From positions 14,245,675 to 14,309,674 of the forward strand of contig NC_087076.1 of NCBI RefSeq assembly GCF_026151205.1: a stretch of DNA of 64,000 nt, read 5' to 3'. Origin of the DNA: Bolinopsis microptera. Its lineage: Eukaryota; Ctenophora; Tentaculata; Lobata; Bolinopsidae. Under the pieces are notes generated by a model. The model saw only the letters and a program-made list of their open reading frames with translations, had not been told where the DNA came from and did no database searches. Each line of letters begins with the position of its first letter. Positions within the stretch are counted from its first letter, which is position 1. This document shows, piece after piece, positions 10,401 to 34,600 of this stretch. Both the position numbers and the translations under genes were made by a program.

Positions 10401-13400
10401 TACTTTAATATACTTTAATATGGTTGGCCCCCCCCCCCCCCCGCCCCCCAAATTGGGTAGATTGGGGCCTCACTAAATTGGGTAGATAGGGGCCTCACTA
10501 AATTGGGTAGATAGGGGCCTCACTAAATTGGGTAGAAAGGGGCCTCACTAAATTGGGTAGATAGGGGCCTCACTAAATTGGGTAGATAGGGGCCTCACTA
10601 AATTGGGTAGATAGCTATAGGGGCCTCACTAAATTGGGTAGATAGGGGCCTCACTAAATTGGGTAGATAGGGGCCTCACTAAATTGGGTAGATAGGGGCC
10701 TCACTAAATTGGGTAGAAAGGGGCCTCACTAAATTGGGTAGATAGGGGCCTCACTAAATTGGGTAGATAGGGGCCTCACTAAATTGGGTAGATAGGGGCC
10801 TCACTAAATTGGGTAGATAGCTATAGGGGCCTCACTAAATTGGGTAGATAGGGGCCTCACTAAATTGGGTAGATAGGGGCCTCACTAAATTGGGTAGATA
10901 GGGGCCTCACTAAATTGGGTAGATAGGGGCCTCACTAAATTGGGTAGAAAGGGGCCTCACTAAATTGGGTAGATAGGGGCCTCACTAAATTGGGTAGATA
11001 GGGGTCTCACTATATTGGGTAGATAGGGGCCTCACTAAATTGGGTAGATAGGGGCCTCACTAAATTGGGTAGATAGGGGCCTCACTAAATTGGGTAGATA
11101 GGGGCCTCACTACATTGGGTAGATAGGGGCCTCACTAAATTGGGTAGATAGGGGCCTCACTAAATTGGGTAGATAGGGGCCTCACTAAATTGGGTAGATA
11201 GGGGCCTCACTAAATTGGGTAGAAAGGGGCCTCACTAAATTGGGTAGATAGGGGCCTCACTAAATTGGGTAGATAGGGGCCTCACTAAATTGAGTAAATA
11301 GGGGCCTCACTAAATTGGGTAGATAGGGGCCTCACTAAATTGGGTAAATAGTGGCCTCACTAAATTGGGTAGATAGGGGTCTCACTAAATTGGGTAGATA
11401 GGGGCCTCACTAAATTGGGTAGATAGGGGCCTCACTAAATTGGGTAGATAGGGGCCTCACTAAATTGGGTAGATAGGGGCCTCACTAAATTGGGTAGATA
11501 GGGGCCTCACTAAATTGGGTAGATAGGGGCCTCACTAAATTGGGTAGAAAGGGGCCTCACTAAATTGGGTAGATAGGGGCCTCACTAAATTGGGTAGATA
11601 GGGGCCTCACTAAATTGGGTAGATAGGGGCCTCACTAAATTGGGTAGATAGGGGCCTCACTAAATTGGGTAGATAGGGGCCTCACTAAATTGGGTAGATA
11701 GGGGCCTCACTACATTGGGTAGATAGGGGCCTCACTAAATCGGGTAGATAGGGGCCTCACTAAATTGGGTAGATAGGGGCCTCACTAAATTGGGTAGATA
11801 GGGGCCTCACTAAATTGGGTAGAAAGGGGCCTCACTAAATTGGGTAGATAGGGGCCTCACTAAATTGGGTAGATAGGGGCCTCACTAAATTGGGTAGATA
11901 GGGGCCTCACTAAATTGGGTAGATAGGGGCCTCACTACATTGGGTAGATAGGGGCCTCACTAAATTGGGTAGATAGGGGCCTCACTAAATTGGGTAGAAA
12001 GGGGACTCACTAAATTGGGTAGATAGGGGCCTCACTAAATTGGGTAGATAGGGGCCTCACTAAATTGGGTAGATAGGGGCCTCACTAAATTGGGTAGATA
12101 GGGGCCTCACTAAATTGGGTAGATAGGGGCCTCACTAAATTGGGTAGATAGGGGCCTCACTAAATTGGGTAGATAGGGGCCTCACTAAATTGGGTAGAAA
12201 GGGGCCTCACTAAATTGGGTAGATAGGGGCCTCACTAAATTGGGTAGATAGGGGCCTCACTAAATTGGGTAGATAGGGGCCTCACTAAATTGGGTAGATA
12301 GCTATAGGGGCCTCACTAAATTGGGTAGATAGGGGCCTCACTAAATTGGGTAGATAGGGGCCTCACTAAATTAGGTAGATAGGGGCCTCACTAAATTGGG
12401 TAGATAGGGGCCTCACTAAATTGGGTAGAAAGGGGCCTCACTAAATTGGGTAGATAGGGGCCTCACTAAATTGGGTAGATAGGTGTCTCACTATATTGGG
12501 TAGATAGGGGCCTCACTAAATTGGGTAGATAGGGGCCTCACTAAATTGGGTAGATAGGGGCCTCACTAAATTGGGTAGATAGGGGCCTCACTACATTGGG
12601 TAGATAGGGCCTCACTAAATTGGGTAGATAGGGGCCTCACTAAATTGGGTAGATAGGGGCCTCACTAAATTGGGTAGATAGGGGCCTCACTAAATTGGGT
12701 AGATAGGGGCCTCACTAAATTGGGTAGATAGGGGCCTCACTACATTGGGTAGATAGGGGCCTCACTAAATTGGGTAGATAGGGGCCTCACTAAATTGTGT
12801 AGATAGGGGCCTTACTAAATTGGGTAAATAGTGGCCTCACTAAATTGGGTAGATAGGGGCCTCACTAAATTGGGTAGATAGGGGCCTCACTAAATTGGGT
12901 AGATAGTGGCCTCACTAAATTGGGTAGATAGGGGCCTCACTAAATTCGGTAGATAGGGGCCTCACTAAATTGGGTAGATAGGGGCCTCACTACATTGGGT
13001 AGATAGGGGCCTCACTAAATTGGGTAGATAGGGGCCTCACTAAATTGGGTAGATAGTGGCCTCACTAAATTGGTTCTTCCTCTGCAGTAATTCCTTCAGA
13101 TACAAAATAGTAGAAATTACTCTGAGGCACTCTAAATACAATGGCTGCCATTGCATTTGATATTATCATCACTATTTACATCACATTATCTAATTTCAGC
13201 TGCTCAATACAAGATTACTTACTCAATATGGGACGACAGTAACGCAAGGACAAGAGACCCCCAGTACGTTAAAATCAAAGGAACAAAGGGGGAGACGAAC
13301 GAAAATCTGTGTGATGAAAATTTTGATGTAACAAACCAAGATGTGGCGTGTGTTTTTATAAGTGATGTCAACATCGGGGATTACGAATGTGTGTCTTTGA

Positions 13401-15384: not shown

Positions 15385-16656
15385 AATATTAATCTGTGCT
15401 TATCTTTGATTTAATATCTATTATAAAAAGTAATTTTTGCTATTTAAATCATGCCTTATATATGAAAAAAGTTTGTTAGTTGTTATTTTTCAAATGCCCC
15501 ATCATTGTACTCACACATTTGTTACATGTTTGATTGTTGGAAATTGATTTATAATTTTACATTATTTTCATGTTCAGATAAATAGCTTTTATCGATTGGA
15601 TATGAATAACAATTGGTTGATGGTTATGGTCATTTTCTAATAAGCCAACATGCCCAGTGATAAGCAAATAAAGAATGTTGGAGCAAAAATATATCAGGAT
15701 GAATCCTTCAATCTAGTAAAATTATAAGGTCAAAAATAAAGCAATTTAAAACTTAAGTATTCATCTATCAGGCTTAAAAATTTCCAGACAGCTATACAAA
15801 CATGATAAAATTTCGAATGTCATCTTTGATATCAATGTATATGTCAAAATTCAAATGAAGTTTACATTATAGTTATTTTATATTTGGGCAAGAAGTAAAG
15901 TAAAGAACAAAGATTTTATTTTATACCCACAATCAATACATAGTAAGTTCAAACGTTCATGATAAATAACGCTGCTAAATTTCAATGAAACTAATAAATC
16001 AATGAAACTAATAAATCAATGTTTTAGCTCATTTTACAAAGTCAAATATTTAAAACAATTAAAATTGTATAGTGCTCAATTTGTAAATGACTAGTTGATC
16101 TTTGCTATTGGAAGTTTGTCAAGGACTGGCAGCTAGCGGGGGCAAGGAATGCACGGGCTTAGGGGCTTTTGTGCACACCAGAACACTAGCTCGGTAGATT
16201 TTTGGAAACTAGAAGGACTGAAAACTAAAATTGTTTTTGATGGAGGCTGAGGCATGTTTTTGAGAGGGACGGTATAATAGCTTGTGGTAACAACAGGCCT
16301 TTACTTTAATAGGATGAAGTTTTAGTTTTAGGACAGGAAGAAGGCATTAAGAAGATTTGCTCTTTGTTTACAAGGCAGAATATAAGCAATGTTGGTTATA
16401 ATATGTATCAATATCTAGATCTTCGTTTATCAATTTTCACTAAATGGGTTTAAAATTTTAATAGGGAGGGAAATTCATCAACTTTATTAAGTACCTATCA
16501 AAAATAAATCTTATATCAATGTAATATATTAAAAATCATAATCCTAAGTCTAATAATAAATCTGTTAAAAACACTTTCTCACTACACTGCGCTCACACAC
16601 GTTAGTAAGACAAAGGAAAATGCACACCTGGCAGCTAATTTTCAATTTCAAGATAA
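15385..16656. other. Region between the zinc-finger gene and LINE ORF2
   Basis: Holds the putative promoter side of the minus-strand zinc-finger gene and, toward the right, the 3' untranslated part of the minus-strand LINE, whose exact 3' end I could not place. A 20-bp unit (AATGAAACTAATAAATC) is repeated twice at about 15983-16020. No other gene seen. Confidence 0.5.
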
Positions 16657-19600
16657 TCATTTTGGATGTGTGGACCCTAGGGTAGACTTAATGTCAAAAT
16701 TTAGATTAGAGCATTCGAAATCTTTGTTTGTCCAATCAAGATCAGCATGGTTATGCTGGTTGACGAGCAGTGATTGCTTCATCCTAGACTTCAGGCAGGC
16801 CACACTTAGACAGTAGTCACGTATACCAAGCTTAGGCACAATTACGTTCCAAATACGAGTCGTTCTGCTATTGAAGTTGTCAGGGGGGTCTGCTTGGCTT
16901 AGTATAAGGGTGGGTTTCCTACTTGAGCAGGTGAAATTTTCATGGAGGGAAATCGGAGCACGGAATTTCATGATTTTATAGAGCTCAAGGAAACAATGGT
17001 AAGTGTACAGGTTTTGGACGGCAAGTATTCCGTGTTCCTTGAACAAAGGTTTCGTGTGCTCTTTCAAGAAAAATTTTTTGTTCAGATTTTGGTTGCCAAA
17101 CGGTCGAGCACGAGCACAGGTCTTAAATTTATCTAGGTATGCCTCCCTGTCGCCAAACAGTACCCTGAGACAATATTTTTGTGCTTTGAATACAGAACTT
17201 ATACGAGTTTTGGCTGCCCCACCCCAAACCGTGATACAATAGGAGAGGTGTGATTCAAATAGAGTGTAATACAACTGGCGGTGTAAGAAATCTGGGAGGG
17301 AGCAGCGTAGGCGGCAGAGAGTTGATGTTGCATGGCTGAGAGAACGCCTAAGTGATTTTATATGTTCTTCCCAGGTTAGCTTTTCATCGATGACGACTCC
17401 CAGAAACTTAGCAGATGCAACTTGTTTTATTGGAAAGTTATCAATGGTTAGAGTATATTCAGAATTATTGTCAGTCTGGGAGGACGATGCTGGTTTAAAG
17501 TGAATGAAACAGCATTTAGACAAGTTGACATGGAGTTTGTTTGCTCGCATGTAGGAATATAAACTAGCTAAAAGAGAATTACCACGCATATATGCCTCCT
17601 TTTTAGATTTCCCAGTCACAAATATATTGGTGTCATCAGCGAAGGTGACAAATGATCCCAAACTGGAGCTGTTGGCGATATCATTAATATATAGGAGAAA
17701 TAAGAGAGGTCCAAGAATCGAACCCTGAGGGACTCCAAACTGTATTTTCAAGGCGTCAGATTTCTCACCAACAACTTCAGTATATTGTGATCTATTTGTT
17801 AGGTAACTTTTTATAAGATCATTTGCCACCCCACGTATCCCATAGCCCTGTAATTTGACAAGTAATGTACCATGATCTATTGTATCAAAAGCTTTGCTAA
17901 GGTCTATGAATATGCCTAAGACATGATGCTTAAGTTTTAGAGATTCAGTTATAAGGTTTACTGAGTGATTAACTGCATGTGAAGTAGAGTGTGACTGCCT
18001 GAAGCCAAATTGTGTTTTAGATATTATACCCTGTGAGCTAGCAAACGAATATATTCTTGAGTAAATGATCTTTTCAAAGATTTTACCAAATATAGAGAGA
18101 GTAGAGATTGGGCGGTAGTTTTCTATCTCTTCAGGGTTTCCCTTCTTAAATACAGGAGTTATTCTACCAGTCTTTAAAACGTCGGGGAACGTGCCATTAG
18201 ACATTAAGATGTTGATGTATCGACTAAGGATCGGTGTAATTACGTGAGATGATCTTTTGATTACACTAACAGGAATATCACTTGCTTTTCCATTTTCAAA
18301 TCCTTTTATTATTTCCGTTATCTCATAAGGTGTACAGTCTTCTAACATAATCGATTTTTCATTAGTCTTTCCAAGGAAATCATAGAATGTTTTTATAGGG
18401 AGAATTGGTAAACCAGAGGCCTCACTGCTACTAAGTGTTTCATTGAGCTTAGGGGCAATAGAAACAAAGTAAGAGTTGAATCCATTGGCTATGACTCTAC
18501 GATTCATGATTCGTTCGTTGTTTATGATAAAGGGAGGCTTAGTTTGCTTCTTTTTCTTGCCCCTGAGCTCATTGATTATCTGCCACGTTTTTTTGCTGTT
18601 TTCTATATTTTTATGGATTTCATTGCAGTAGTACGATCGTTTGGCGACCTTGATAATACTTTTAAGCATTCTTCGGTAGTCACTGAAGACTTTATAGAGC
18701 AGTACATTACCCTCAGGGTTTCTATTTGTTACAGTGCTTGACCAGTCTCTACAGAGTTCATGTTTTCTTTCAACTGAGACAATGATTCCATCGGTAATCC
18801 ACGGGTTGAGTTTGGGAGTCCTTTTGGTAACTTTTGGTACATCAAGCTTACAGTGTTTATCAAGTGTTTCATTGAAGCAGTCCAAGAACTCATTGAAGTT
18901 TACCGAGGGAGTTAAGTCATTCACCTTCACCTCGAGTTCATTAACAAAATTAGTGAGTTTGGAACTTGAATAATCATAGTAGCGAACATGTTTAAGTTTT
19001 TCAGTACTGTTTTTGGTAGGAATTGACGTGAAGGTGAATATAAAGGCATGGTCACCAATCCTATCATTCAATACACCGGAGAGAAGTACATGATCTATCT
19101 CTGATGTGAGGATATTGTCAATACATGAGTTTTTACAGTTAGGACGGAAGTGGGTAGCAAGTGATATAGTAGGATACATATTGTTACGAAGTAACGTGTC
19201 CTCAAATAACTGGCTGGAGGTTTGTACATTGAGGAGGTTAGAGTTAAAATCGCCAAGAATATGGAACTTTTTACCAGCCAACTGCTTAGATATATCCTCA
19301 AGAGTTTGACAAAAGGTCTCACTACAGCCATTTGGAGGACGATAAGCAACCCCATATGTCAGTTTATCACCCGAGCTAAGAGTAATTTCAACAAATAAGC
19401 ACTCAATATCTTTTGTACAGTGAGATAGATTTTCGATTACTACAGCATTCAGGCGATCAGAGACATATAAGGATACTCCTGTTCCTTTTTTCTTATCAGG
19501 GAATGGTACTTGACAAAATGTTGTATAGGAGGGGATTTGGTATAAGCCTTGTTGGCTTGGATCGATGTTGGTCTCAGCCAATCCAATGACATCAAAATTA

Positions 19601-19684
19601 CACGGGAGGGTCTTATGTTCTATTAAAAAGCTGTCAAAATTACTAGCAAACCCATCTATATTGCAAAACAGAGCTGGCAGATAA

Positions 19685-21751
19685 GGGCATATTTCAAAAC
19701 TGGTTCCACTTGGAGGAAATTTCAGAAATGCTTTTATCAATCCAATTTTGGAAATTTTAGAATGTTTGAACTTTATACTTTGAAAATCTGCAATATTGGA
19801 GACATCAATCTACTCTATCATGCAAAAATAGCTCATTCTATCATCGACACTAAAACAATCCTCAAAAGTGTGCTCTACTTCATAACGTCTCTAGATTAGG
19901 CCTTTGCTTGAACTAAACCCAAATTTTGTGTGTTAGTATATGAGATTTCATTTTTACAGACTGATATAAAGCCCAATCAAGGAGAATGAGCTAACATGGG
20001 GAAAATGTGGTTTAAAAATTTTTGTCACTCCGTAACAAAAAGGTGTCAAAAAGTTATCTATTCTCTTAACTACACGCCTATTGCATTCCATATTTTCTGA
20101 AGTATCTCAGTGACCTTACACTAAGATTTTCCAACATTTTCGATTGATAACATTATAATTTAAGAGGAAATATGATGAGCCAAACTTTGGTCACTCCGTA
20201 ACGCTGTGTTACGGAGTGACAAATTCAAGGGACATTGTCACTCCGTAACGAATTTTTTTTATTGACATTGGACACATAGTGTCCAATCAGGTTGTCATAA
20301 ATACACCAAAGGAGTTTGCAACCTATGCTGACAGTCTTCTCAAGTCAATCAATGTCGTGTATGTTGGAGATCTAGCCTCAGGTATGGAAGAGGAGTGCAG
20401 AAGGAAAGCAAGACCAGTTCCAGGAACCTTAAAAGTGCACCACATTGTCCGTTCTTTCAAAGATAACAGCTGCATCCTTACCTTTAGGGGCACGTCAGTT
20501 GATGGATCTTTGATAAAGAAGATAGAGTATGCCGATGAATCATCTGCTCAGACGACTTCAACAACAGTTATTGGAGAGGAGGAAACACCATCATCTTCTA
20601 ACAGCTGTGAAACTTACAACATTGATCAATTCGTGATTGTTAACTGGGAGGGTGAACTTTATCCAGGAAAAGTTATTGGCAAGCCAGACAGCAGTAACCT
20701 TACCGTTAAGTGCCTTGTACCAGCTGGAAAACCTGGATCAATCTGGAAATGGCCTGACAAAGAGGACGTCCATGATTACGAACTTAGTGACGTGAAAGGA
20801 GCTATTGGTATGCCGAAGCTTTTGCCGGGAACAGGGAGAAGAATAGAGTTTGAAGTACCTGAACTTGCTTATAAGTGGGGTGTAAAGGTTTGAATTTTCG
20901 TTAATCTGTGTACATTGTACAGTTTATAACTTTAAACAAATAAGCCCAGATTTTTAAACATTTCATTATGATATGTCACTCTGTAACAGATTCTTAACCG
21001 AGTAATATTTGTAGAAAGTAAAACCAATGAGACTGATTTTTATGCAGTTGTTTATATTTTTCAAACAGTGATTTAAATGTGCTGTATTTTAAGGGAAATT
21101 TACAGAGTTGTAAGCTCCAGGGTTGATTTTTTATCACATGATCGTATTTTTATTCATAATTGTGATCAAGACTAATGAATTGTACCAGATTTGATTTATT
21201 TCACATCAATAAATTTGTGTGTCTACCTTGTTTAAGTGTTATCTATCTAATTTTGAAAAGAATTCTACTATTTAGAGCCAGGCACAGGATGAAAAATGAT
21301 GAAAAATTCGAGTGGAATGAGAGACTGTTTGATGCGTCACTCCGTAACAGTCACTCCGTAACAATCCCCAAAATTTTTGAAGCCTCAAATTTTTTACTCC
21401 TTAGGCAATACACACTTTTTCCTGATTAATTATTGAAGGAAAATGTCTGAAAAGTGCCTGGAAGCCGTCAAAATGCAACTTTCAAGAATATCTGAGATAA
21501 AAATTAGGTCAGAATATGGGTGTACCAAAATCTGAAAATTTATCTAGTCACTCCGTAACCAAATTTCGACTTTTAATTACTCAAAAACGGATTGATTTCT
21601 CACTATTTTCTTTGGCAGATATGTAAATCGTAGGTTTGAAAAGCCTTAGAAACATAATTTAACCAATAATGAACCTGTTTTCTTGGACATTTTTCGGAAA
21701 AAATGGGTAAAATTGTCACACCGTAACATTCTATAGTTTTGAAATATGCCC
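19685..21751. mobile_element. TIR element inserted in LINE ORF2
   Basis: Perfect 17-bp terminal inverted repeats (GGGCATATTTCAAAACT at 19685-19701; complement at 21735-21751) are flanked by ATAA at 19681-19684 and 21752-21755, a 4-bp target duplication. Inside are nine copies of GTCACTCCGTAAC or one-base variants: 20024, 20190, 20208 (inverted; forms a palindrome with the previous copy), 20237, 20975 (variant), 21336, 21350, 21547 and 21715 (variant). The only substantial frame is the 204-residue protein at 20279. No transposase is recognisable, so it is probably an internally deleted derivative. Superfamily undetermined. Confidence 0.88.
20279..20893 (+). CDS. Element-borne protein with a chromatin-reader-like C-terminus
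   Basis: The 204-residue frame begins with GTG and remains open upstream, so this is more likely a spliced or truncated 3' exon; CAATCAG at 20283-20289 could be an acceptor. The C-terminal part (DQFVIVNWEGELYPGKVIG...WKWPDKEDVHDYELSDV) resembles a short barrel domain seen in uncharacterised transposon-linked proteins of invertebrates; the Tudor/PWWP-like reading is mine. The N-terminal part is unrecognised. It lies inside the TIR element and antisense to the LINE. Function unknown. Confidence 0.5.
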   Translation: MSNQVVINTPKEFATYADSLLKSINVVYVGDLASGMEEECRRKARPVPGTLKVHHIVRSFKDNSCILTFRGTSVDGSLIKKIEYADESSAQTTSTTVIGEEETPSSSNSCETYNIDQFVIVNWEGELYPGKVIGKPDSSNLTVKCLVPAGKPGSIWKWPDKEDVHDYELSDVKGAIGMPKLLPGTGRRIEFEVPELAYKWGVKV

Positions 21752-22129
21752 ATAAGCAGAATTTTTATTTTTCTCAGGAAAAAGTTTGCTGATTGAGTTT
21801 GCTAGTTCTTGTTTTGTGTAACACTTACAGTCTTCAAGTATTGAAGAGAATTTAGCTATGGTGACATCTTCCTGGTTGTTTGTATCATAGAATTTATCTG
21901 AATCATCATATCTTTGGCTGCTTGGAAATGGGCAATACCTATCTTCTATTGTACTACAGCAATCACTACACATCCATAGACCGTTTTTGCTTGTAAATTT
22001 CGCGGATCTGAAGCACTTAGTATGAACAACTTTGCTGCAATTTTCACATTCTAAGAGTGGCTGGCCAATATTAATGTATTTACTACAGGGGTCGCACACA
22101 TCTTTAATAAGTTTCATAATCATGATAAA

Positions 22130-24211
22130 CTAAGTGGGATAAACTCCCACTGGTCGGGTGGCCTTCCTTTGTCTTACTCTCTCCTGTCTCTCCCTCACAT
22201 ACACCCACTGTTTCAGACATCTCACAAATTTAGCAATACCAAGCTCTCCGAGATGGATTTCATCACCATTTCTCGTGAGTTTCATAGCAAGCAACCCTTT
22301 ACCGTCTAAAAAGTGGCCAACACCAAGGTGCCATGCATTCTGGTTAAAGCTAGAGTACAACATTTCATCAACCAAGCTGTTGAATGCCATAATGTTTTTA
22401 TTCATCTTAGGGAGTCTAGACGGTAAAACTGCTGTGACAAACAACTTCGCCTTAGGGCACAGTTTCTGGATCTGCTGGATTTTCAGGTGGAGAATGTCTA
22501 CCAGCTGGTGTATATCACCAGGTGACTGCACATTTTCAACTCGTAGATCGTTGGTCCCACAAACTAAGATGACGTTGCTATAACCAATGCAGAGCTTAGG
22601 GTCTATTGCACTGACCTTGTTGGCTTTAACACGTTCACCTGGGAAGGACTGTCCAAGGGTTCCAGTACCGACACCGAACTTGATGGGCTTGGTGTTAGAG
22701 TCGCCCATGATGATGCAGCTCCTGCTAAACTGTTTGCTCACAGTTCTCAGTGTGATGGAGAACCTTCCTGTCTGCACAGAAGACTGAGTTTCAGCAGGAC
22801 CTGTTTCATCAATACCGTGACGATACCAGGCTTGTGACGATCGTGTCATCACATACACTGAGTTAGATTCTGGACTCACACTATGAACATACTCAGTTGA
22901 GGCTTCGTTTCCGGTCTCATGGATGCACTTAAAGCACACCTTCCTGACGTCGCCTATGCTGATAGTAGCAATTTCTGAGTTAGCAATAATCTCAGACTCA
23001 TCGTCAGAGTGAAAAGGGAGCTTGCTACTAGTGGTGGTATCAACTGAGGGAGGGTAGTAGTTTATTAGGATGGAGTTGGGCTTATGGGTCAGTCTGCACT
23101 TTGATGTAACTGCGTCTATGGCTGAGGCAAGGGGTGCTGGGATTGTGGGGGATAGGGGTGGGTCTGAATCACCAGTATAAGAGTAGTCTTCCCCAAACTT
23201 GAGGACCTGTCTTCCATTCTTCGGGATGAACTTATTACTAGCTTGGCTCTCCAGGAGAAACTCTGTAACTTCTTTGAGGATCTCAGCACTTAGCACATCG
23301 ACCAGGTAATCACACACTGGAGGTTCTGTGCATTTAGGGAGGGGGATTTCTGTAGCAGGTGGTGCTTCAGATGGACTTCTGGACTGCTGAAATTCATGAA
23401 TCTCTTGACTCAGCTTCTTCAGTCTTGTCTCCAGGGATACAATCTCCACAGTAGGCATACTGTTACCAACAGCATTAGAAATAGCATCTGATATAGCCTG
23501 TATGTTCTGGCTGTAGTCTACAGAGCTCTTTAGGTTGTTGTCCATCTTGGCTGACATGCTGGAGCCTGGTCTGGGGAATGATGTATCGAAACACCATGGA
23601 CATAGCCATTCTGAGAGAATAATATTCAGAGAAGCTTCAAGAGGTGTATCGTGCTGAATGTTGTTAGCACCCTTGAGATTGGAACAGGAAGCATGCCAGT
23701 GCTGAAAACATCTGGTACACTTGAACTTCCATTCCTTACCATCTGATGTTGATCGGCAAGGACAATCACTCTTTGAAGCCCGTTGTTTTACTGTAGGTTT
23801 ATCCTGGATTTCAAGTTCTTCAGCAGACTCTTCAGCATGTGAGAATGGAGGAAAGGACTTGTACAGAGGGCTCATTGGACTGCTGGGGCTCTTTCTGAGG
23901 TTTGATGATTCTAAAGCTGATATCAGGTTTGGGCTGATCTTTTCAATAACCAGATTACCTGGAGGTTTAAGAACAGATGTCTCTGGTTGTTCTTGGGGTG
24001 ACTTTGATGGGCGTTTACCCAGCACAGCTTTCTGGGCCATTGCGCTAGGGCTGTTCCTGCGCAGGGCTTTGTTGTCTGCTAGAGGTTTCTTCTTTTGGGA
24101 GGTAGCTCCTCTGCCGGATGGTGACATGCTAGCTCTGGATCCTGGGTTGGTAGGAGGAGGAGTGTGTCTAGGGGAACGCCTTTGGGTACTAGCACTTGAG
24201 GTAGTAGCCAT
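22130..24211 (-). CDS. LINE ORF1: PHD finger, AlkB-like dioxygenase, SGNH esterase
   Basis: Intact 693-residue protein. Residues 1-145 are basic and S/P-rich. A PHD-like zinc finger spans 150-208 (CPCR...KCTRCFQHWHASC...WLCPWC). Residues 255-275 could form a short coiled coil. Residues 300-495 fit an AlkB-type 2OG-Fe(II) dioxygenase: NSILINYY at 379-386, iron-ligand HSD (H401, D403), second histidine in YRH (H465) and 2-oxoglutarate motif RFSITLR (R483, R489), in AlkB order and spacing. Residues 500-670 form an SGNH/GDSL hydrolase: block I GDSN at 503-506, block III GTND at 552-555, block V D650/H653. Esterase and PHD domains are known in some CR1-type ORF1 proteins; I do not know of AlkB there. 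It may bind the LINE RNP and reverse alkyl lesions or methyl marks on element RNA (inference). The UAG stop lies 6 nt before the in-frame ORF2 AUG. Confidence 0.87.
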   Translation of the reverse strand: MATTSSASTQRRSPRHTPPPTNPGSRASMSPSGRGATSQKKKPLADNKALRRNSPSAMAQKAVLGKRPSKSPQEQPETSVLKPPGNLVIEKISPNLISALESSNLRKSPSSPMSPLYKSFPPFSHAEESAEELEIQDKPTVKQRASKSDCPCRSTSDGKEWKFKCTRCFQHWHASCSNLKGANNIQHDTPLEASLNIILSEWLCPWCFDTSFPRPGSSMSAKMDNNLKSSVDYSQNIQAISDAISNAVGNSMPTVEIVSLETRLKKLSQEIHEFQQSRSPSEAPPATEIPLPKCTEPPVCDYLVDVLSAEILKEVTEFLLESQASNKFIPKNGRQVLKFGEDYSYTGDSDPPLSPTIPAPLASAIDAVTSKCRLTHKPNSILINYYPPSVDTTTSSKLPFHSDDESEIIANSEIATISIGDVRKVCFKCIHETGNEASTEYVHSVSPESNSVYVMTRSSQAWYRHGIDETGPAETQSSVQTGRFSITLRTVSKQFSRSCIIMGDSNTKPIKFGVGTGTLGQSFPGERVKANKVSAIDPKLCIGYSNVILVCGTNDLRVENVQSPGDIHQLVDILHLKIQQIQKLCPKAKLFVTAVLPSRLPKMNKNIMAFNSLVDEMLYSSFNQNAWHLGVGHFLDGKGLLAMKLTRNGDEIHLGELGIAKFVRCLKQWVYVRERQERVRQRKATRPVGVYPT

Positions 24212-24271
24212 GATGATATGATATCAGAGATATGTCCGGAGTCCAGGGGGCCAGCTTGGACAGACCCCTGC

Positions 24272-24315
24272 ACCTCAAATTATTTGTTATATAGTAGTGT
24301 TGAAAGTATTAAAAC
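24272..24315 (-). promoter_or_regulatory. Shared LINE 5' box, copy in the AlkB-bearing LINE
   Basis: 44 bp, identical to 28821-28864. It starts GTTTTAATAC, contains CTATATAAC and ends TTTGAGGT. It is the extreme 5' end of both LINEs although their ORFs are clearly different, so an internal promoter element is the likely role. Confidence 0.6.
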
Positions 24316-28694: not shown

Positions 28695-31600
28695 ATGGTT
28701 GTTCCAAATTCAACCCCCAAAGATGAAGAGAGCACAAACAAGAGGATCACCCTCAAGATTCTGATACCCGGAGTTGTGGCAGGTAATCAACTTAAGTTTA
28801 CTGTATCTCTCATGATGATAGTTTTAATACTTTCAACACTACTATATAACAAATAATTTGAGGTATGTGACATGTACAAATAGTGGAGAAGTAGTGGAAT
28901 CGTAGACAAGCTATAACGTAGACTCTGACCAGACAAGGCCTCCAGACCAGTCGCTGAAGACCTTTCTTCACTTCTCATCTATATCTTTAAAGGGAGTCCG
29001 ACCCACAAGTCGGAACCTCTCCGGTGGGTTATATCTTTCTCAATTTTGTTTCGACATCTCTGGATTGACGTACACCTTGGAAAACGTTTTGAATGGCTAC
29101 TTCTAATTCTAAATCCCTGATTCTATCTGAATTAACTTCTCCTCAGCTTGATAGTGTTTTGTACAAATTCCAGCTGATTGCTCCGGATGGGTATGACGAG
29201 GATGGAAAACGTGAACTACTGCGCAGCAGCAAAGTCTTCATACGAGGAATTGGGGACCAGGCTAATGAGAACATTTTGGCGATATTCAGTAACAAAGGTA
29301 CATTTGTCGATTTTGAGTCAGCAGATGGAAAGGTAAAAGGAATTTTTGCTAAATCAGAATCTGGTAAGGTGATGTATCCATGTTCTGTTTGCTGTAAAGA
29401 GGTTACAGATAGGTCAGATACATCAGGTCTTGGTATCGAATGTAGTGGATGTGGGTGGTATTTTCACACTAGCTGCACATACAAGCCTGTTAGTCTTGAC
29501 CTTTTTAAAGCTCTTAAGGACTCTCCAAGCTACATCAAGGTGCTGTGCCCCCCATGCAACTCCGTGTATGGTAGTGCTCTCTCCAAGCTGAAGCGTGTGG
29601 AGCATAAGTTGGATGCTATGGCTGTGAAGGTTAACAGTGTAGAAACTAAGGTAAAACAGGCGGCCACTAAAGTACCCTACAGTACTGCTGTTTCAAATGG
29701 TATCTCCAAAAACAGTCCTATCCCACAAAAGGTCATGGAGGGTTTGAAATCTATATCAAAAGCTAAACAGGAGTCTGATGATGTTGAGCGACTCAAACGT
29801 ACCAGAGTTGTTATCCGACCAGAAGATACTAACATAAGGACTAGTCGTGATATACGTAAGGCTTTCAATCAGCATTACAAAGGCATGGTGATCAAACATT
29901 GTAGGCTAACGGCATCAGGATCCATCACATTTGAGTTTGAAGATGAAAACACAGCAAACAATGTGCAGTCTAACTGGGAAACAAGTCATTTTGGTGGTAA
30001 TAAAGGTATGAAAATACCAGGAGACTATAACACTGTGGCCATGGTTAAGCATGTGTATGATGATCACAATGAGGATGACATGAAAAATGAGATTATGCAA
30101 AACTACTCTGGTATTGTCACAAAATGCGAATTTCAACGGAAAAGGTCTGATAAATCATTCAATGGAATGATCAAACTTGAATTTTCGTCTCGAGAAGAAA
30201 TGATGAAGGTAGTCAAAGACAAGATACAGTTTTGTCATCAGCGCTATATTGTTGAAGAGTACAAAAGAAGGTCCAGGGTTATCAAGTGCAACAAGTGCCA
30301 AGGTTGGGGACATATTCACCGGTATTGCACCAAGCCAGCTAAGTGTGGAAATGTGCAGAAAATCATGAAAGCAATAGCTGTTCAATAACCAGTGGGTTCA
30401 AGTGTGCACATTGCAACAAAGATCACCAAGCAGGATCATTTGATTGTGCAGTGTACAAAGAGAAATTGGTTAAATTCTCTCATGATGCATTATGATCGAT
30501 TATAACACTTCAAGTAGAAATGCCCAAAATAGCACAGTGTTTGGTAAATTATGCACAATCAACATCTGCGGACTATCCCAAAGAAGCAACATGATGCTAA
30601 GCAAGTATGCGTTTGACAACGACATCCTTCTATTTGGTGTGCAGGAGACAGGTGCTGGAAGCCAATGGAAATCATTAACAAACATGAAAACTTTTGAAGA
30701 TACAAATAATAATAGCAACAAAGGCTGTGCAATCATGGTTAGACAAGAGATCATGTTCACACAGCTTCCTGTTATCTCAAACATTTCATCAAATATTGAC
30801 TCAGTTTGGGGAATGTTATCTTGGAACGGCAAAAGATACATAATTGGCAACCTCTATTTGAAACTGGACTACCTATCAGGTGTGAAAGAGATGTTGGTTA
30901 TGCTTGATAAGGCTCATGAAATGAGCAAGCTTCACAAGTGTACAGGTGTGATTGCTATGGGGGATTTTAATGCTCGCCACTTTATCTGGAATGATACTGT
31001 GGTAAATAAGTATGGAAAATATATTGAAGAACATCTAGACTGGTCCAAGTTCTGTGTCCATGCACCTTCGTCAAGCACGTTCTTGGCAAGGAATGGGAGC
31101 AGCCATATTGACTTTTTCATCACATCCACACAGCTCGATAAGTATATAGATCATCCAATTGCAGATCACTTTGCTAACTTGTATAGTGGGGCTCCTTTGA
31201 GAGGTCACGTTCCAGTATCAATCAATGTTCAATCACAACCTGTGGCAATCAGGTCAGAGAATGTTCAGAAGTATAACCTTCAGTCAATGGACTGGTTTAA
31301 CTGGACTAGAGACATTGAGATTGACTTGACACTCGAAAAAACCGATAGCTTAGCAACTGATGGGACTATCAAGGAATTGCTGGAAGTTATTAACACAGCT
31401 ATTGATGTTTCTACAAAAGAAAACTGCCAAATGAAATGTGTCTCCAAACACAGTAAACCGTACTGGACCCCCAAGCTATCTGTGCTTTCTGGGAAACTAA
31501 GATTCGACCTCAAATCGTATTTAACCAGAAATACGGACACTGCATTTGAAGCAATGCAGACCTCAGAGAAGGAATTTGAAGAAGCAAGAAAGCAGGCATG

Positions 31601-34600
31601 TCAGCAGTTTATCCTTCGAAAGACAAATGACCTGAACACCTCTCAGGCAAAAAAGTTCTGGAAAGAGTTCAATAAGCTCTTCAAACCCCCATCTGATCAA
31701 ATGGTTGAAGCTCTTATCTCAGAGGATGGAACTATTCTCACAGAAAATGCTGACATCGAGAAGGAAATGTTTGGAACGTTTTTTCAGGCTAAACACATAG
31801 TTCATAATATCGATCAATTTGATGATGTTTTCTATCAGGAAATAAACAACCTGTATGACGACATCAAAAACAGCAACTTCCAGCCCAGTGAGGATATGGC
31901 AGATAGATTTACAAGCAGCTCCGCCCTTTACTGCCCGGTTACACCATGGGAGATCACTGCTACTCTGAAAGGTATTCACTCTACAGCGGCTAGTTTTGAT
32001 AATCATGAAGTACATCAGTCTATGCTAAAGAAACTAGGTCCAAATGCAATTCATGCACTAAGCAGGCTCTTCACACTCTGCTTGCGTAATGGACTTTGGT
32101 TGAGGAACGACTCTAAGATCGTGTTCCTCAAAAAAGATGGAAAGTCCTCATATTCCAAAGCAGGTGCATACAGGCCAATTTCAATCTCCTCGTATGTAGG
32201 CAAACTGCTTGAACGAATCTTGGCACAACGACTTGAGGTATATCTAAAGAAAGTGGGAATTATTGATGTAAATCAGGAAGGTTTCTCCAAAGGTAAAAAC
32301 ACTATCAGATACCTCAATAGGCTGACTGCTGGTATTAAAGGTGATATTATGAAGAAGCTTACGGTACTTTGTTTGTTCATTGACTTCGAAAAAGCTTTTG
32401 ATTCAGTGTGGAAAAAAGGACTAGTTGTTAAGCTCTGGAGAGCTGGCGTTCATGGCTGCTATCTTAAAACTATAGACAGCTTTCTGTTTAGTCGTACAGT
32501 TTGCCTTCTAATAAATGGATTTCTCGGCCCAGTTAGAGACTGCCTGGACTATGGGTTACCACAAGGATCTGTGCTGTCCCCTATGTTGTTCAAATTCTTC
32601 ATTATGGATATCGAGGCTGTCTGTTCAGTGTACCAACAGATTAGTGTCTTGAAGTTTGCTGATGATGGGACAGTTAAAGTGGTTGGCAGAGACTTAGAAG
32701 AGTGTCTTTTCTATCTCAACCTGGCTATGGACAGCATTGAATATTGGACATCTTGTTGGCGCCTGGTTATAAACTGTGATGCAAATAAGACTGAGATTAT
32801 ATGCTTCAACTCATATGATCAAGCCGGAATCCCAACCTCATTCAAACTAGGAGGGAAACTAATTCATCTAACAGATCAAACGAAAGTTCTGGGTGTCATA
32901 CTAGACAGTAAGTTGACCTTCAAACAGCACAGCAAGCATGTCTACAATAATCTAGTCTACCGCTGGGTTTGTATGAGTCGTTATGCAAACAGAAACTGGG
33001 GCATGAACCAAGCAGTGCTAGTTAGAGTTGCCAAAACCATTCTCTTCTCAACACTGTTCTATGGATCTATTATATGGATGAAAAATTCAAATATGACAGA
33101 CATAAACAAACTGTGGTACAGAGTGTCTAAAGCTGCAGTCGGGGCTGTTTTCAATGTACACGGGGCCATTCTTGAAGTCATTCTGGGTGTACCACCACTC
33201 CAAACAATGGGGAGAGTAATTTCGATCAAACATTACCTTAAGGTTCTCCATGACTCAGACGACATTCATTTTGACTTCGTGAGAACTCAACTAGATGAAA
33301 TGAACCCAACAGTACTCTTCCATCTCCGAGACGTGCAGAAATTCTTAAAATGGAAAGTAGAACATTTCAGCACTGAAGGTCAGACCTGTCACTTAACCCA
33401 GAGAAATCTAGAACAAGTTCTGTTACTACCCAAAAAGATTTATAAGTACACTAAAGGAATGATGCAGCAATTCACAGAGCTTCTTTGGCAAGAGAGCTTA
33501 CAAAACCTACTACTGACGGAAGGATGGTCTGAAATTCCAAGAGTCTCCTGCAACCCCCTTCCTATCCCCTTTGGAGTGAGCCGCGAAGTGGAAGTATTAG
33601 TTATGAGTCTCATGTACAAGAACAATCTACTGAACTCGTTTCTCTTCAGAGTTGACAGAGCAGTGGCCTCTCCGCTATGCATCTGTGGCTCGGATGAGCA
33701 AACAGCACTGCACCTACTATCAAGTTGTGAGCTTGTGGACGCGAATCTACAATGTCAAGCTGAACGAATCATCACCCTGTGTAACAGCGGTAGGTCCATG
33801 GTCGATCTAGCAGCTGAGCAGGGCTCCATCATACTGAACTGTTCAAGGGACGAAATGTTTATAAGTGTGTGTGTTGAAATTGTAGAAAGCGAGGGGCTAC
33901 ATCTTAAGCGAAAGATTAATCTTTCGAAAAGATAAGGATTTATTATAGCATCTAATTTTGCTAATCTTGCTACTACTATGATAAAGAATGAAATACCATG
34001 TATATTGAAGTGTAGTAAAGTGTTATTGGACTTTGCTTATTTGATAACAAACACCTTTAAATTAAATATTGTTTTAATAACAAGGGAATGAGTTTTTCTA
34101 TTTGAGCTGTTTAGTTCAAAGAAAAGCAGATATGGACTGCTTTAAAACTTTTATTTTGGAAAAAGTTTGTTTCAGTAACCATTGAGAACCAGTGGCCTTT
34201 TGTAACTGCATCTTTAACCTCAGTTTCACTTTGAAACGTCAAGTGACTGGTAAAGTCAAATATTCTGTTCTATGAACATTTATTCTAGTATTTTGAAGTG
34301 TAGAAATTGTTAAGATCTTTAAGTTTGTACTAAATTACTGATGTTTTATAACGTTTTAACGGGGTGTAATTTTGTTAGGTAGGTATTTAAAATTATTAGT
34401 CTTTTGGAAATTGAAGTTTTGATCTTTACTATTTATTGTTAATAAAATGCTCATTGTAGCCAGTTATTTTAAGATTTTCATCATCATCATCATGATGATA
34501 TTTTTAATGGCCAACAATTATAATCGGATTACAATGAAATTTGGGTTGCAAAAACTGAAATCTCAAAATGTCCACTGGTAGGATGTTTTCATGATTTTCC

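What the first reader, a model, noticed from the sequence alone, without database searches (positions are those of the whole stretch)
22130..24211. LINE ORF1 that carries an AlkB-like 2OG-Fe(II) dioxygenase between a PHD finger and an SGNH esterase
Seen: in one intact frame, PHD cysteines/histidine at 150-208, then NSILINYY, H401-x-D403, H465 and RFSITLR (R483/R489) in AlkB order and spacing, then SGNH blocks GDSN, GTND and D650/H653. Known: AlkB enzymes remove alkyl groups from RNA and DNA; esterase and PHD domains occur in some CR1-type ORF1 proteins. I know of no described LINE with AlkB. Inference: the element may demethylate or repair its own RNA or cDNA, or erase host RNA marks; plant RNA viruses with AlkB are an analogy.
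Basis: partly seen in the sequence, partly recalled or inferred. Interest (0 to 1): 0.88.

Follow-up and report, generated by a model that had tools for sequence, protein, structure and literature searches.

The report
Jumping gene carrying a demethylase domain
A recently active jumping gene in what is probably a comb jelly genome makes a protein with a built-in AlkB-type enzyme that, in other proteins, removes chemical tags from RNA or DNA, and relatives of this enzyme occur in other kinds of jumping gene in the same genome, which suggests that such elements gain from repairing or un-tagging nucleic acid.

Summary
ORF1 (22130-24211, minus, 693 aa) is a PHD-like finger, probable coiled coil, AlkB-type 2OG-Fe(II) dioxygenase and SGNH hydrolase (Pfam 2OG-FeII_Oxy_2 1e-18). 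It is ORF1 of a real LINE: an endonuclease-reverse transcriptase ORF2 follows after 6-12 nt, here split by a 2,067-bp DNA transposon. The genome holds at least 15 full-length ORF1 copies at 98-100%, 13 without stops; 7 of these 15 elements keep both frames open.

The same genome has at least 151 AlkB matches, among them two further LINE lineages with distant RTs and Helitrons with SGNH plus AlkB. The LINE copies also start with a trans-spliced leader.

Best mechanism (inferred, substrate untested): the enzyme rides in the ORF1p-RNA particle and strips m1A/m3C-type methyls that would stall reverse transcription. I found no printed description of AlkB in a LINE in the listings I searched.

The parts
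15982..24314 (-). Whole LINE copy: spliced leader at the 5' end to 3' tail, including a 2,067-bp DNA transposon inserted in ORF2
   Evidence: Ends set by comparison with 14 further copies of the genome
24274..24314 (-). 41-nt trans-spliced leader TTTTAATACTTTCAACACTACTATATAACAAATAATTTGAG at the 5' end
   Evidence: 33-nt core 1,095 exact times in the genome, reversed control 0; tandem SL RNA gene arrays with GTAAG donor
22130..24211 (-). ORF1, 693 aa: disordered N-terminus, PHD-like finger, probable coiled coil, AlkB, SGNH
23588..23764 (-). PHD-like zinc finger, residues 150-208
   Evidence: weak in this copy, PHD models in some other members, conserved Cys, profile to Pygopus/MLL PHD chains E 0.018-0.1
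23384..23557 (-). long helices, residues 219-276, probable coiled coil
   Evidence: AlphaFold secondary structure H219-251, H258-276; no coiled-coil program was run
22733..23332 (-). AlkB-type 2OG-Fe(II) dioxygenase domain, residues 294-493
23003..23011 (-). H401-S-D403, iron ligands
   Evidence: H and D 189 of 189 aligned
22817..22819 (-). H465, third iron ligand
   Evidence: 189 of 189 aligned
22745..22765 (-). R483...R489, 2OG and substrate arginines (RFSITLR)
   Evidence: 188 of 189 each
22166..22720 (-). SGNH hydrolase domain, residues 498-682 (GDSN, GTND, D650, H653)
21752..22123 (-). ORF2 first part (first ATG 6 nt, second 12 nt after the ORF1 stop) with a PHD finger
   Evidence: PHD E 1e-5, above cut-off; agrees with the P0091 N-terminus
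21959..22096 (-). PHD finger of ORF2
19685..21751 (.). DNA transposon inserted in ORF2: 17-bp inverted repeats GGGCATATTTCAAAACT, target duplication TTAT, 204-aa ORF at 20279-20893 (+)
16657..19684 (-). ORF2 rest: APE-type endonuclease and reverse transcriptase
   Evidence: RVT_1 1.9e-35; Exo_endo_phos 9.2e-5, 22.7 bits, below its cut-off of 24.5
15982..16015 (-). 3' tail: two units of TTTATTAGTTTCATTGA instead of poly(A)

Best explanation
This is the ORF1 of a recently active, CR1/L2-like LINE in what is most likely a ctenophore. Shown: ORF1p joins a PHD-like finger, long helices, a complete AlkB dioxygenase and an SGNH hydrolase; the AlkB active site is intact and under purifying selection between related subfamilies; most residues that hold the methylated base in ALKBH2 are kept. 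Inferred: ORF1p coats the element's RNA, and its AlkB domain uses Fe(II), 2OG and O2 to strip Watson-Crick-face methyl groups (N1-methyladenine, N3-methylcytosine) from that RNA or the first cDNA strand. Such methyls stop a reverse transcriptase, so the enzyme would clear the template and let target-primed reverse transcription run to the 5' end. The SGNH domain probably serves membrane or particle handling, as proposed for ZfL2-1.
Against: No activity or substrate data. The ALKBH2 D174 equivalent, D404, varies (D 119, N 39, R 14, K 7 of 189), so the pocket need not have the ALKBH2 preference. With the single sequence as query the best solved chain is ALKBH8 (4.6e-4), ALKBH2 only 0.13 or more (0.18 at best). 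In the AlkB tree the window lineage lies outside the ALKBH2/3 clade. Changes among the 15 young copies show no clear constraint in AlkB (13 nonsynonymous, 5 synonymous, 1 stop, ratio 0.79), and none of the 36 listed dN/dS pairs includes the window's own subfamily. AlkB in Helitrons, which have no RNA intermediate, does not fit an RNA-only, RT-stalling explanation.
Confidence: 0.5

Rival explanations
1. Eraser of a host mark: the host writes methyl marks on transposon nucleic acid (m6A or m1A on RNA, or N6-methyladenine on DNA) to mark or silence them, and mobile elements of several kinds took up AlkB to remove it.
For: AlkB occurs in at least three LINE lineages whose RTs are only 25-31% identical between lineages and in Helitrons of one genome, at least 151 matches (host genes included); a shared pressure on RNA and DNA elements would explain this better than RT stalling. 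Orchid Gypsy elements carry an AlkB with demethylase activity in vitro, described as m6A demethylase (PMC9289625, passages). A review reports that loss of Alkbh1 raises N6-mA on young mouse L1s with silencing of nearby genes (PMC4982230, passage).
Confidence: 0.27
2. General alkylation repair of template RNA or cDNA (exogenous damage), as proposed for plant RNA viruses with AlkB, not a programmed mark.
For: Viral AlkB domains are structural matches, and PMC544882 (passages) argues for repair against environmental methylation.
Against: Hard to see why damage should favour AlkB in so many element lineages of one animal; not excluded. Largely the same chemistry as the best explanation.
Confidence: 0.15
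3. Protein demethylase or hydroxylase acting on chromatin, guided by the PHD finger.
For: PHD-like finger in the same protein.
Against: Base-stacking aromatics and E405 of the nucleic-acid AlkBs are kept; the examples of lineages B and C (L044, L046) show no PHD match at E <= 0.01 yet keep AlkB.
Confidence: 0.05
4. Catalytically idle RNA-binding or structural domain.
For: Retrotransposon ORF1 domains are often only binders (recalled).
Against: HDHR intact in 187 of 188 homologues.
Confidence: 0.03

Closest known systems
CR1/L2 LINEs with esterase ORF1 (type IV; e.g. zebrafish ZfL2-1)
   Same: Two ORFs, SGNH esterase in ORF1, APE-type EN plus RT, 3' end in short repeats (the last recalled for CR1/L2); profile match to the ORF1-encoded protein 4c1b
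   Different: An AlkB dioxygenase precedes the esterase; none of the ORF1 domains in Table 1 of the 448-element survey PMC4120745 is an AlkB, and there no subgroup has both PHD and esterase
Orchid Ty3/Gypsy elements with AlkB (PMC9289625)
   Same: A retrotransposon encoding an AlkB-type demethylase
   Different: LTR element, separate ORF, ALKBH5-like, plants; here a LINE, inside ORF1p with SGNH, nearest to ALKBH2/3 by profile and fold
AlkB domains of positive-strand RNA viruses (flexi-, clostero-, picorna-like)
   Same: AlkB domain inside a multidomain replication protein of an RNA-based parasite; Foldseek matches
   Different: Viruses use an RNA polymerase; identity 13-24% in the rows shown
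Human ALKBH2/ALKBH3 and the host's own ALKBH2/3-like frames (L040, L041, L042)
   Same: Fold and active site
   Different: Cellular repair enzymes, no PHD, SGNH or RT; the window domain is 17-22% identical to the human structures and gives weak BLAST hits to the host frames (29-39 bits)

Membership tests
AlkB / 2OG-FeII_Oxy_2 | Profile match above the curated cut-off | tested here: met
   68.7 bits against 31.2; 47 of 47 members of A2 at E <= 0.01
AlkB / 2OG-FeII_Oxy_2 | HxD...H iron triad and R...R for 2OG and substrate | tested here: met
AlkB / 2OG-FeII_Oxy_2 | Double-stranded beta-helix of the AlkB type | tested here: met
   predicted, not solved:
AlkB / 2OG-FeII_Oxy_2 | Oxidative demethylation of nucleic acid | not testable with these tools
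   needs protein
ALKBH2/ALKBH3 subfamily | Base-pocket residues Y122, F124, D174, E175 | tested here: inconclusive
   three kept (F124 as Tyr), D174 equivalent varies; roles recalled
ALKBH2/ALKBH3 subfamily | Phylogenetic placement inside the clade | tested here: inconclusive
   window lineage outside the host ALKBH2/3 clade; single origin of all transposon AlkBs not rejected, p-AU 0.117; ALKBH8 is a poor, very long outgroup
LINE (non-LTR retrotransposon), CR1/L2-like | APE-type endonuclease and RT in ORF2 behind ORF1 | tested here: met
LINE (non-LTR retrotransposon), CR1/L2-like | Dispersed copies with common 3' end and some 5' truncation | tested here: met
LINE (non-LTR retrotransposon), CR1/L2-like | RT clade assignment against Repbase references | not testable with these tools
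   no reference set held; CR1/L2-like rests on ORF1 type and 3' repeats
SGNH esterase ORF1 | Ser, Asp, His in SGNH blocks and SGNH fold | tested here: met
PHD finger (ORF1) | Profile above cut-off and eight zinc ligands | tested here: inconclusive
   below cut-off in this copy; PHD_4 in 11 of 47 members at E <= 0.01
Spliced-leader-capped transcript | Leader identical to tandem SL RNA genes with a GT donor | tested here: met

The most novel reading that the evidence does not exclude
In ctenophores AlkB is a general counter-defence cargo: LINEs of at least three lineages and Helitrons carry AlkB together with an SGNH domain, from one or more captures, because the host controls mobile DNA through a base-methylation mark or through methyl groups that block copying (possibly also in the cap of the trans-spliced leader that the LINE RT must read through). 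The element-encoded enzymes would reveal an unrecognised nucleic-acid methylation defence in one of the earliest animal branches.
Probability: 0.3. Interest if true: 0.94.

Novelty: new variant of a known kind. Interest (0 to 1): 0.87.

Why it matters
A LINE that brings its own nucleic-acid demethylase makes a question directly testable: do base methyl groups on transposon RNA or cDNA limit retrotransposition, and do elements fight back? It adds a catalytic domain to the list of ORF1 modules, and the recurrence of AlkB with SGNH in distant LINEs and Helitrons of one genome points to a selective pressure that I did not find described in the papers I could search. Ctenophores branch very early among animals, so a methyl-mark defence there would bear on how such defences arose.

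Tried and rejected
Artefact or chimera: rejected, since many dispersed copies and homologues share the order. ORF1 not tied to the RT: rejected; the gap between the ORFs and the RT frame is a DNA transposon, and joining its flanks gives the uninterrupted frame seen in P0091. A first, weak link by equal contig lengths (5 of 89 ORF1 hits share a contig length with the 120 listed of 3,224 ORF2 hits; 400 offset controls mean 0.9, maximum 4) was superseded by DNA. Viral-contig scan with the ORF1 alignment: 28 pattern matches, no relative. NCBIfam gave no AlkB model for the window protein at E <= 1. Origin of the domain from RNA viruses: viral AlkBs are structural matches, but this does not show which way; not decided. 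Single versus multiple capture: lineage C groups with cellular ALKBH2/3 (99/98), others outside, but one clade of all transposon AlkBs is not rejected (p-AU 0.117). Target-site duplications: one 17-bp case (L017); at most 9 bp, or none, in the other 12 copies tested.

Literature: searches (open PubMed Central only; I read the rows listed, not every matching paper). None of the rows read describes AlkB in a LINE or Helitron; Repbase Reports and most subscription papers are not covered, so prior mention cannot be excluded. A paper on ctenophore spliced leaders (Derelle et al., recalled) was not held.

Full report
What was checked. The minus-strand frame 22130-24211 encodes 693 aa without a stop. 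Pfam finds 2OG-FeII_Oxy_2 at residues 340-489, E 1e-18, 68.7 bits over a cut-off of 31.2; PHD and GDSL models are below cut-off in this copy. A phage-protein library gives 'alkylated DNA repair' at 3.6e-6 for residues 357-490. With 46 homologues, 47 of 47 proteins match 2OG-FeII_Oxy_2, 31 of 47 Lipase_GDSL_2 and 11 of 47 PHD_4 at E <= 0.01. A profile of this alignment finds human ALKBH2 (1.3e-16), ALKBH3 (1.6e-14), ALKBH8 (8.3e-12) and E. coli AlkB (1e-6), the LINE 'ORF1-encoded protein' 4c1b (0.0025, SGNH part; I take it for zebrafish ZfL2-1, recalled) and PHD chains of Pygopus and MLL proteins (0.018-0.1) among solved structures. The single sequence alone finds only ALKBH8 below 0.1 (4.6e-4).

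Conservation. Two protein searches gave 89 and 102 further homologues. Over these 191, H-D-H-R is intact in 187 of 188 that cover the four places (P0273 has Q for R) and S-D-H of SGNH in 177 of 183. Against ALKBH2 (alignment; residue numbers and roles recalled) the aromatic pair Y122/F124, the 2OG ligands N159, Y161, R248, R254 and E175 have counterparts; the D174 counterpart D404 varies. Mean column entropy is 2.16 bits in AlkB and 2.09 in SGNH against 2.91 in the coil/linker. Between diverged relatives in the same genome AlkB dN/dS is 0.10-0.19 in 34 pairs with dS 0.15-0.94 and 0.36 in two pairs with dS 0.03; these 36 of 153 possible pairs (those with AlkB pS 0.03-0.62) share sequences and are not independent, and none includes the window's own subfamily. 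Among 15 young copies of the window's family, AlkB shows 13 nonsynonymous and 5 synonymous changes plus a stop, which says little.

The element. ORF2 begins 6 or 12 nt after the ORF1 stop with a PHD finger (E 1e-5), and goes on, after a 2,067-bp insertion (17-bp inverted repeats, TTAT duplication), into endonuclease and RT. The window lies in a 264.65-Mb genome; ORF1 has 65 matches there (64 of 1,033 candidates scored, a lower bound), 15 of them full-length at 98-100%, 13 without a stop. The 14 other than the window's were fetched with flanks: complete elements are about 6.75 kb, aligned parts 99.0-99.6% identical to L009, and 7 of the 15 (window included) have both frames open. The 3' ends stop in repeats of TTTATTAGTTTCATTGA; one copy has a 17-bp target duplication. 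So the family was active recently; the window copy itself is broken in ORF2.

Host. The hits that name a eukaryote (10 of 191 ORF1 homologues; also P0136 among the 120 listed ORF2 hits) are all Mnemiopsis leidyi; one hit is named a bacterial MAG, probably contamination. The genome size and long contigs (12 lengths seen, 15-26 Mb) resemble a Bolinopsis assembly (recalled). In Mnemiopsis P0306 has AlkB, then EN and RT, in one gene model, with GDSN and GIND motifs between; P0240 and P0251 have AlkB behind RT or EN pieces, as nested insertions or model errors would give.

Not alone. The same genome has at least 151 AlkB matches (150 of 587 candidates scored; host genes included). Seven stretches were fetched. 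Three look like host genes (ALKBH2-like L040, PDB E 3.9e-60; ALKBH3-like L041, 2.4e-39, and L042, 2.6e-27). L044 has ORF1 AlkB-SGNH, then EN-RT; L046 has AlkB first, a weak SGNH match (0.0079), then an RT frame; L045 has AlkB-SGNH, 31.5% identical to L044's over 473 aa, but no RT frame of 120 aa or more in the stretch fetched; L043 is one long frame SGNH (9.7e-6, below cut-off)-AlkB-DUF6570-Helitron_like_N. RTs of the window's lineage, L044 and L046 are 25-31% identical between lineages. Near-identical Helitron pieces (99.8%) lie where expected behind three further AlkB matches and 51-52% relatives behind two more (5 of 5 checked). P0089 has two AlkB stretches and SGNH. In a tree of 26 domains lineage C (L046) falls with cellular ALKBH2/3 (99/98), lineage B and Helitron/P0089 apart, but one clade of all transposon domains is not rejected (p-AU 0.117). 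So there were one or more captures.

Spliced leader. The first 41 nt of the copy are a leader found 1,095 times in the genome (33-nt core, reversed control 0). Core plus GTA occurs 176 times; the places listed include tandem arrays of 35 units (mostly 591 bp apart, C3) and 12 units (about 857 bp, C5); in the pieces read the leader is followed by GTAAG, 5S rRNA lies between the C5 units, and Rfam gives SmY matches below the gathering score directly behind the leader. I take these for SL RNA genes. The leader is exact in 10 of 15 copies of this family, in related subfamilies (L025, L028), in lineage B (L044) and, as a 27-nt match, before the second LINE of the window (28836-28862). In the window copy, L018 and L019 it is joined at an acceptor TCCTTTCAG|GTGCAGG, so about 500 nt of 5' UTR are missing. 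LINE messages are thus, it appears, trans-spliced before they are copied back.

How it may work. ORF1p of LINEs binds its RNA (established for L1; inferred here). An ALKBH2/3-like enzyme in that particle could remove m1A and m3C, which block reverse transcriptases (established, recalled), from template or cDNA. The Helitrons argue for a wider role, such as ssDNA repair or removal of a host mark. In human cells m6A promotes L1 and ALKBH5 suppresses it (PMC7873242, passages), so simple m6A erasure would be costly there; an orchid Gypsy AlkB is a functional demethylase in vitro (PMC9289625, passages). For plant viruses repair of alkylated RNA was argued (PMC544882, passages). The SGNH partner has hydrolytic activity and binds charged lipids in ZfL2-1 (PMC3905857, passages).

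Novelty. The survey of 448 Jockey-superfamily elements lists no AlkB among ORF1 domains in its Table 1 (PMC4120745, abstract and first part of the Results). My ten searches found no report of AlkB in a LINE or Helitron in the rows read, within open PubMed Central only. I file it as a new variant of a known kind: an esterase-type LINE ORF1 with an added AlkB.

Noticed in passing
24274-24314 (-), 28836-28862 (+); L052, L053: Spliced leader at the 5' ends of two unrelated LINEs in the window and of other families; probable SL RNA gene arrays (one with 5S rRNA) found. L009 seems to carry a variant leader ending TTATTGAG.
   Followed up: yes
L043:1383-8999 (+), with L047-L051: Helitrons with SGNH and AlkB in one very long frame (3,388 aa); at least 4 near-identical copies and 2 relatives.
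   Followed up: partly
L043:735-1235 (+): Frame upstream of the Helitron ORF contains LSGDVETNPGP, a 2A-like ribosome-skipping motif (recalled).
   Followed up: no
L044, L045, L046: Two further LINE lineages with AlkB and SGNH in ORF1 (L044, L046), and L045, a relative of the L044 ORF1 without an RT frame in the stretch read; L046 has AlkB near the N-terminus and groups with cellular ALKBH2/3.
   Followed up: partly
L039:268-4452 (+): Subfamily copy with AlkB, endonuclease and RT in one 1,395-aa open frame, the SGNH part cut short (ORF1 match ends at residue 580).
   Followed up: no
P0089: Protein with two AlkB stretches followed by SGNH and no PHD match; host unnamed.
   Followed up: partly
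19685-21751: DNA transposon with TTAT duplication, seven exact GTTACGGAGTGAC motifs in both orientations and a 204-aa ORF without Pfam match.
   Followed up: partly
28836-33935 (+): Second LINE: ORF1 431 aa with a weak PHD match, ORF2 1,147 aa EN-RT, no AlkB match.
   Followed up: partly
10450-13073: Array of 104 copies of a 25-bp unit (AAATTGGGTAGATAGGGGCCTCACT).
   Followed up: no
P0056: Homologue whose first 200 or so residues nearly equal the window family and the rest a diverged one: recombinant element or assembly chimera.
   Followed up: no
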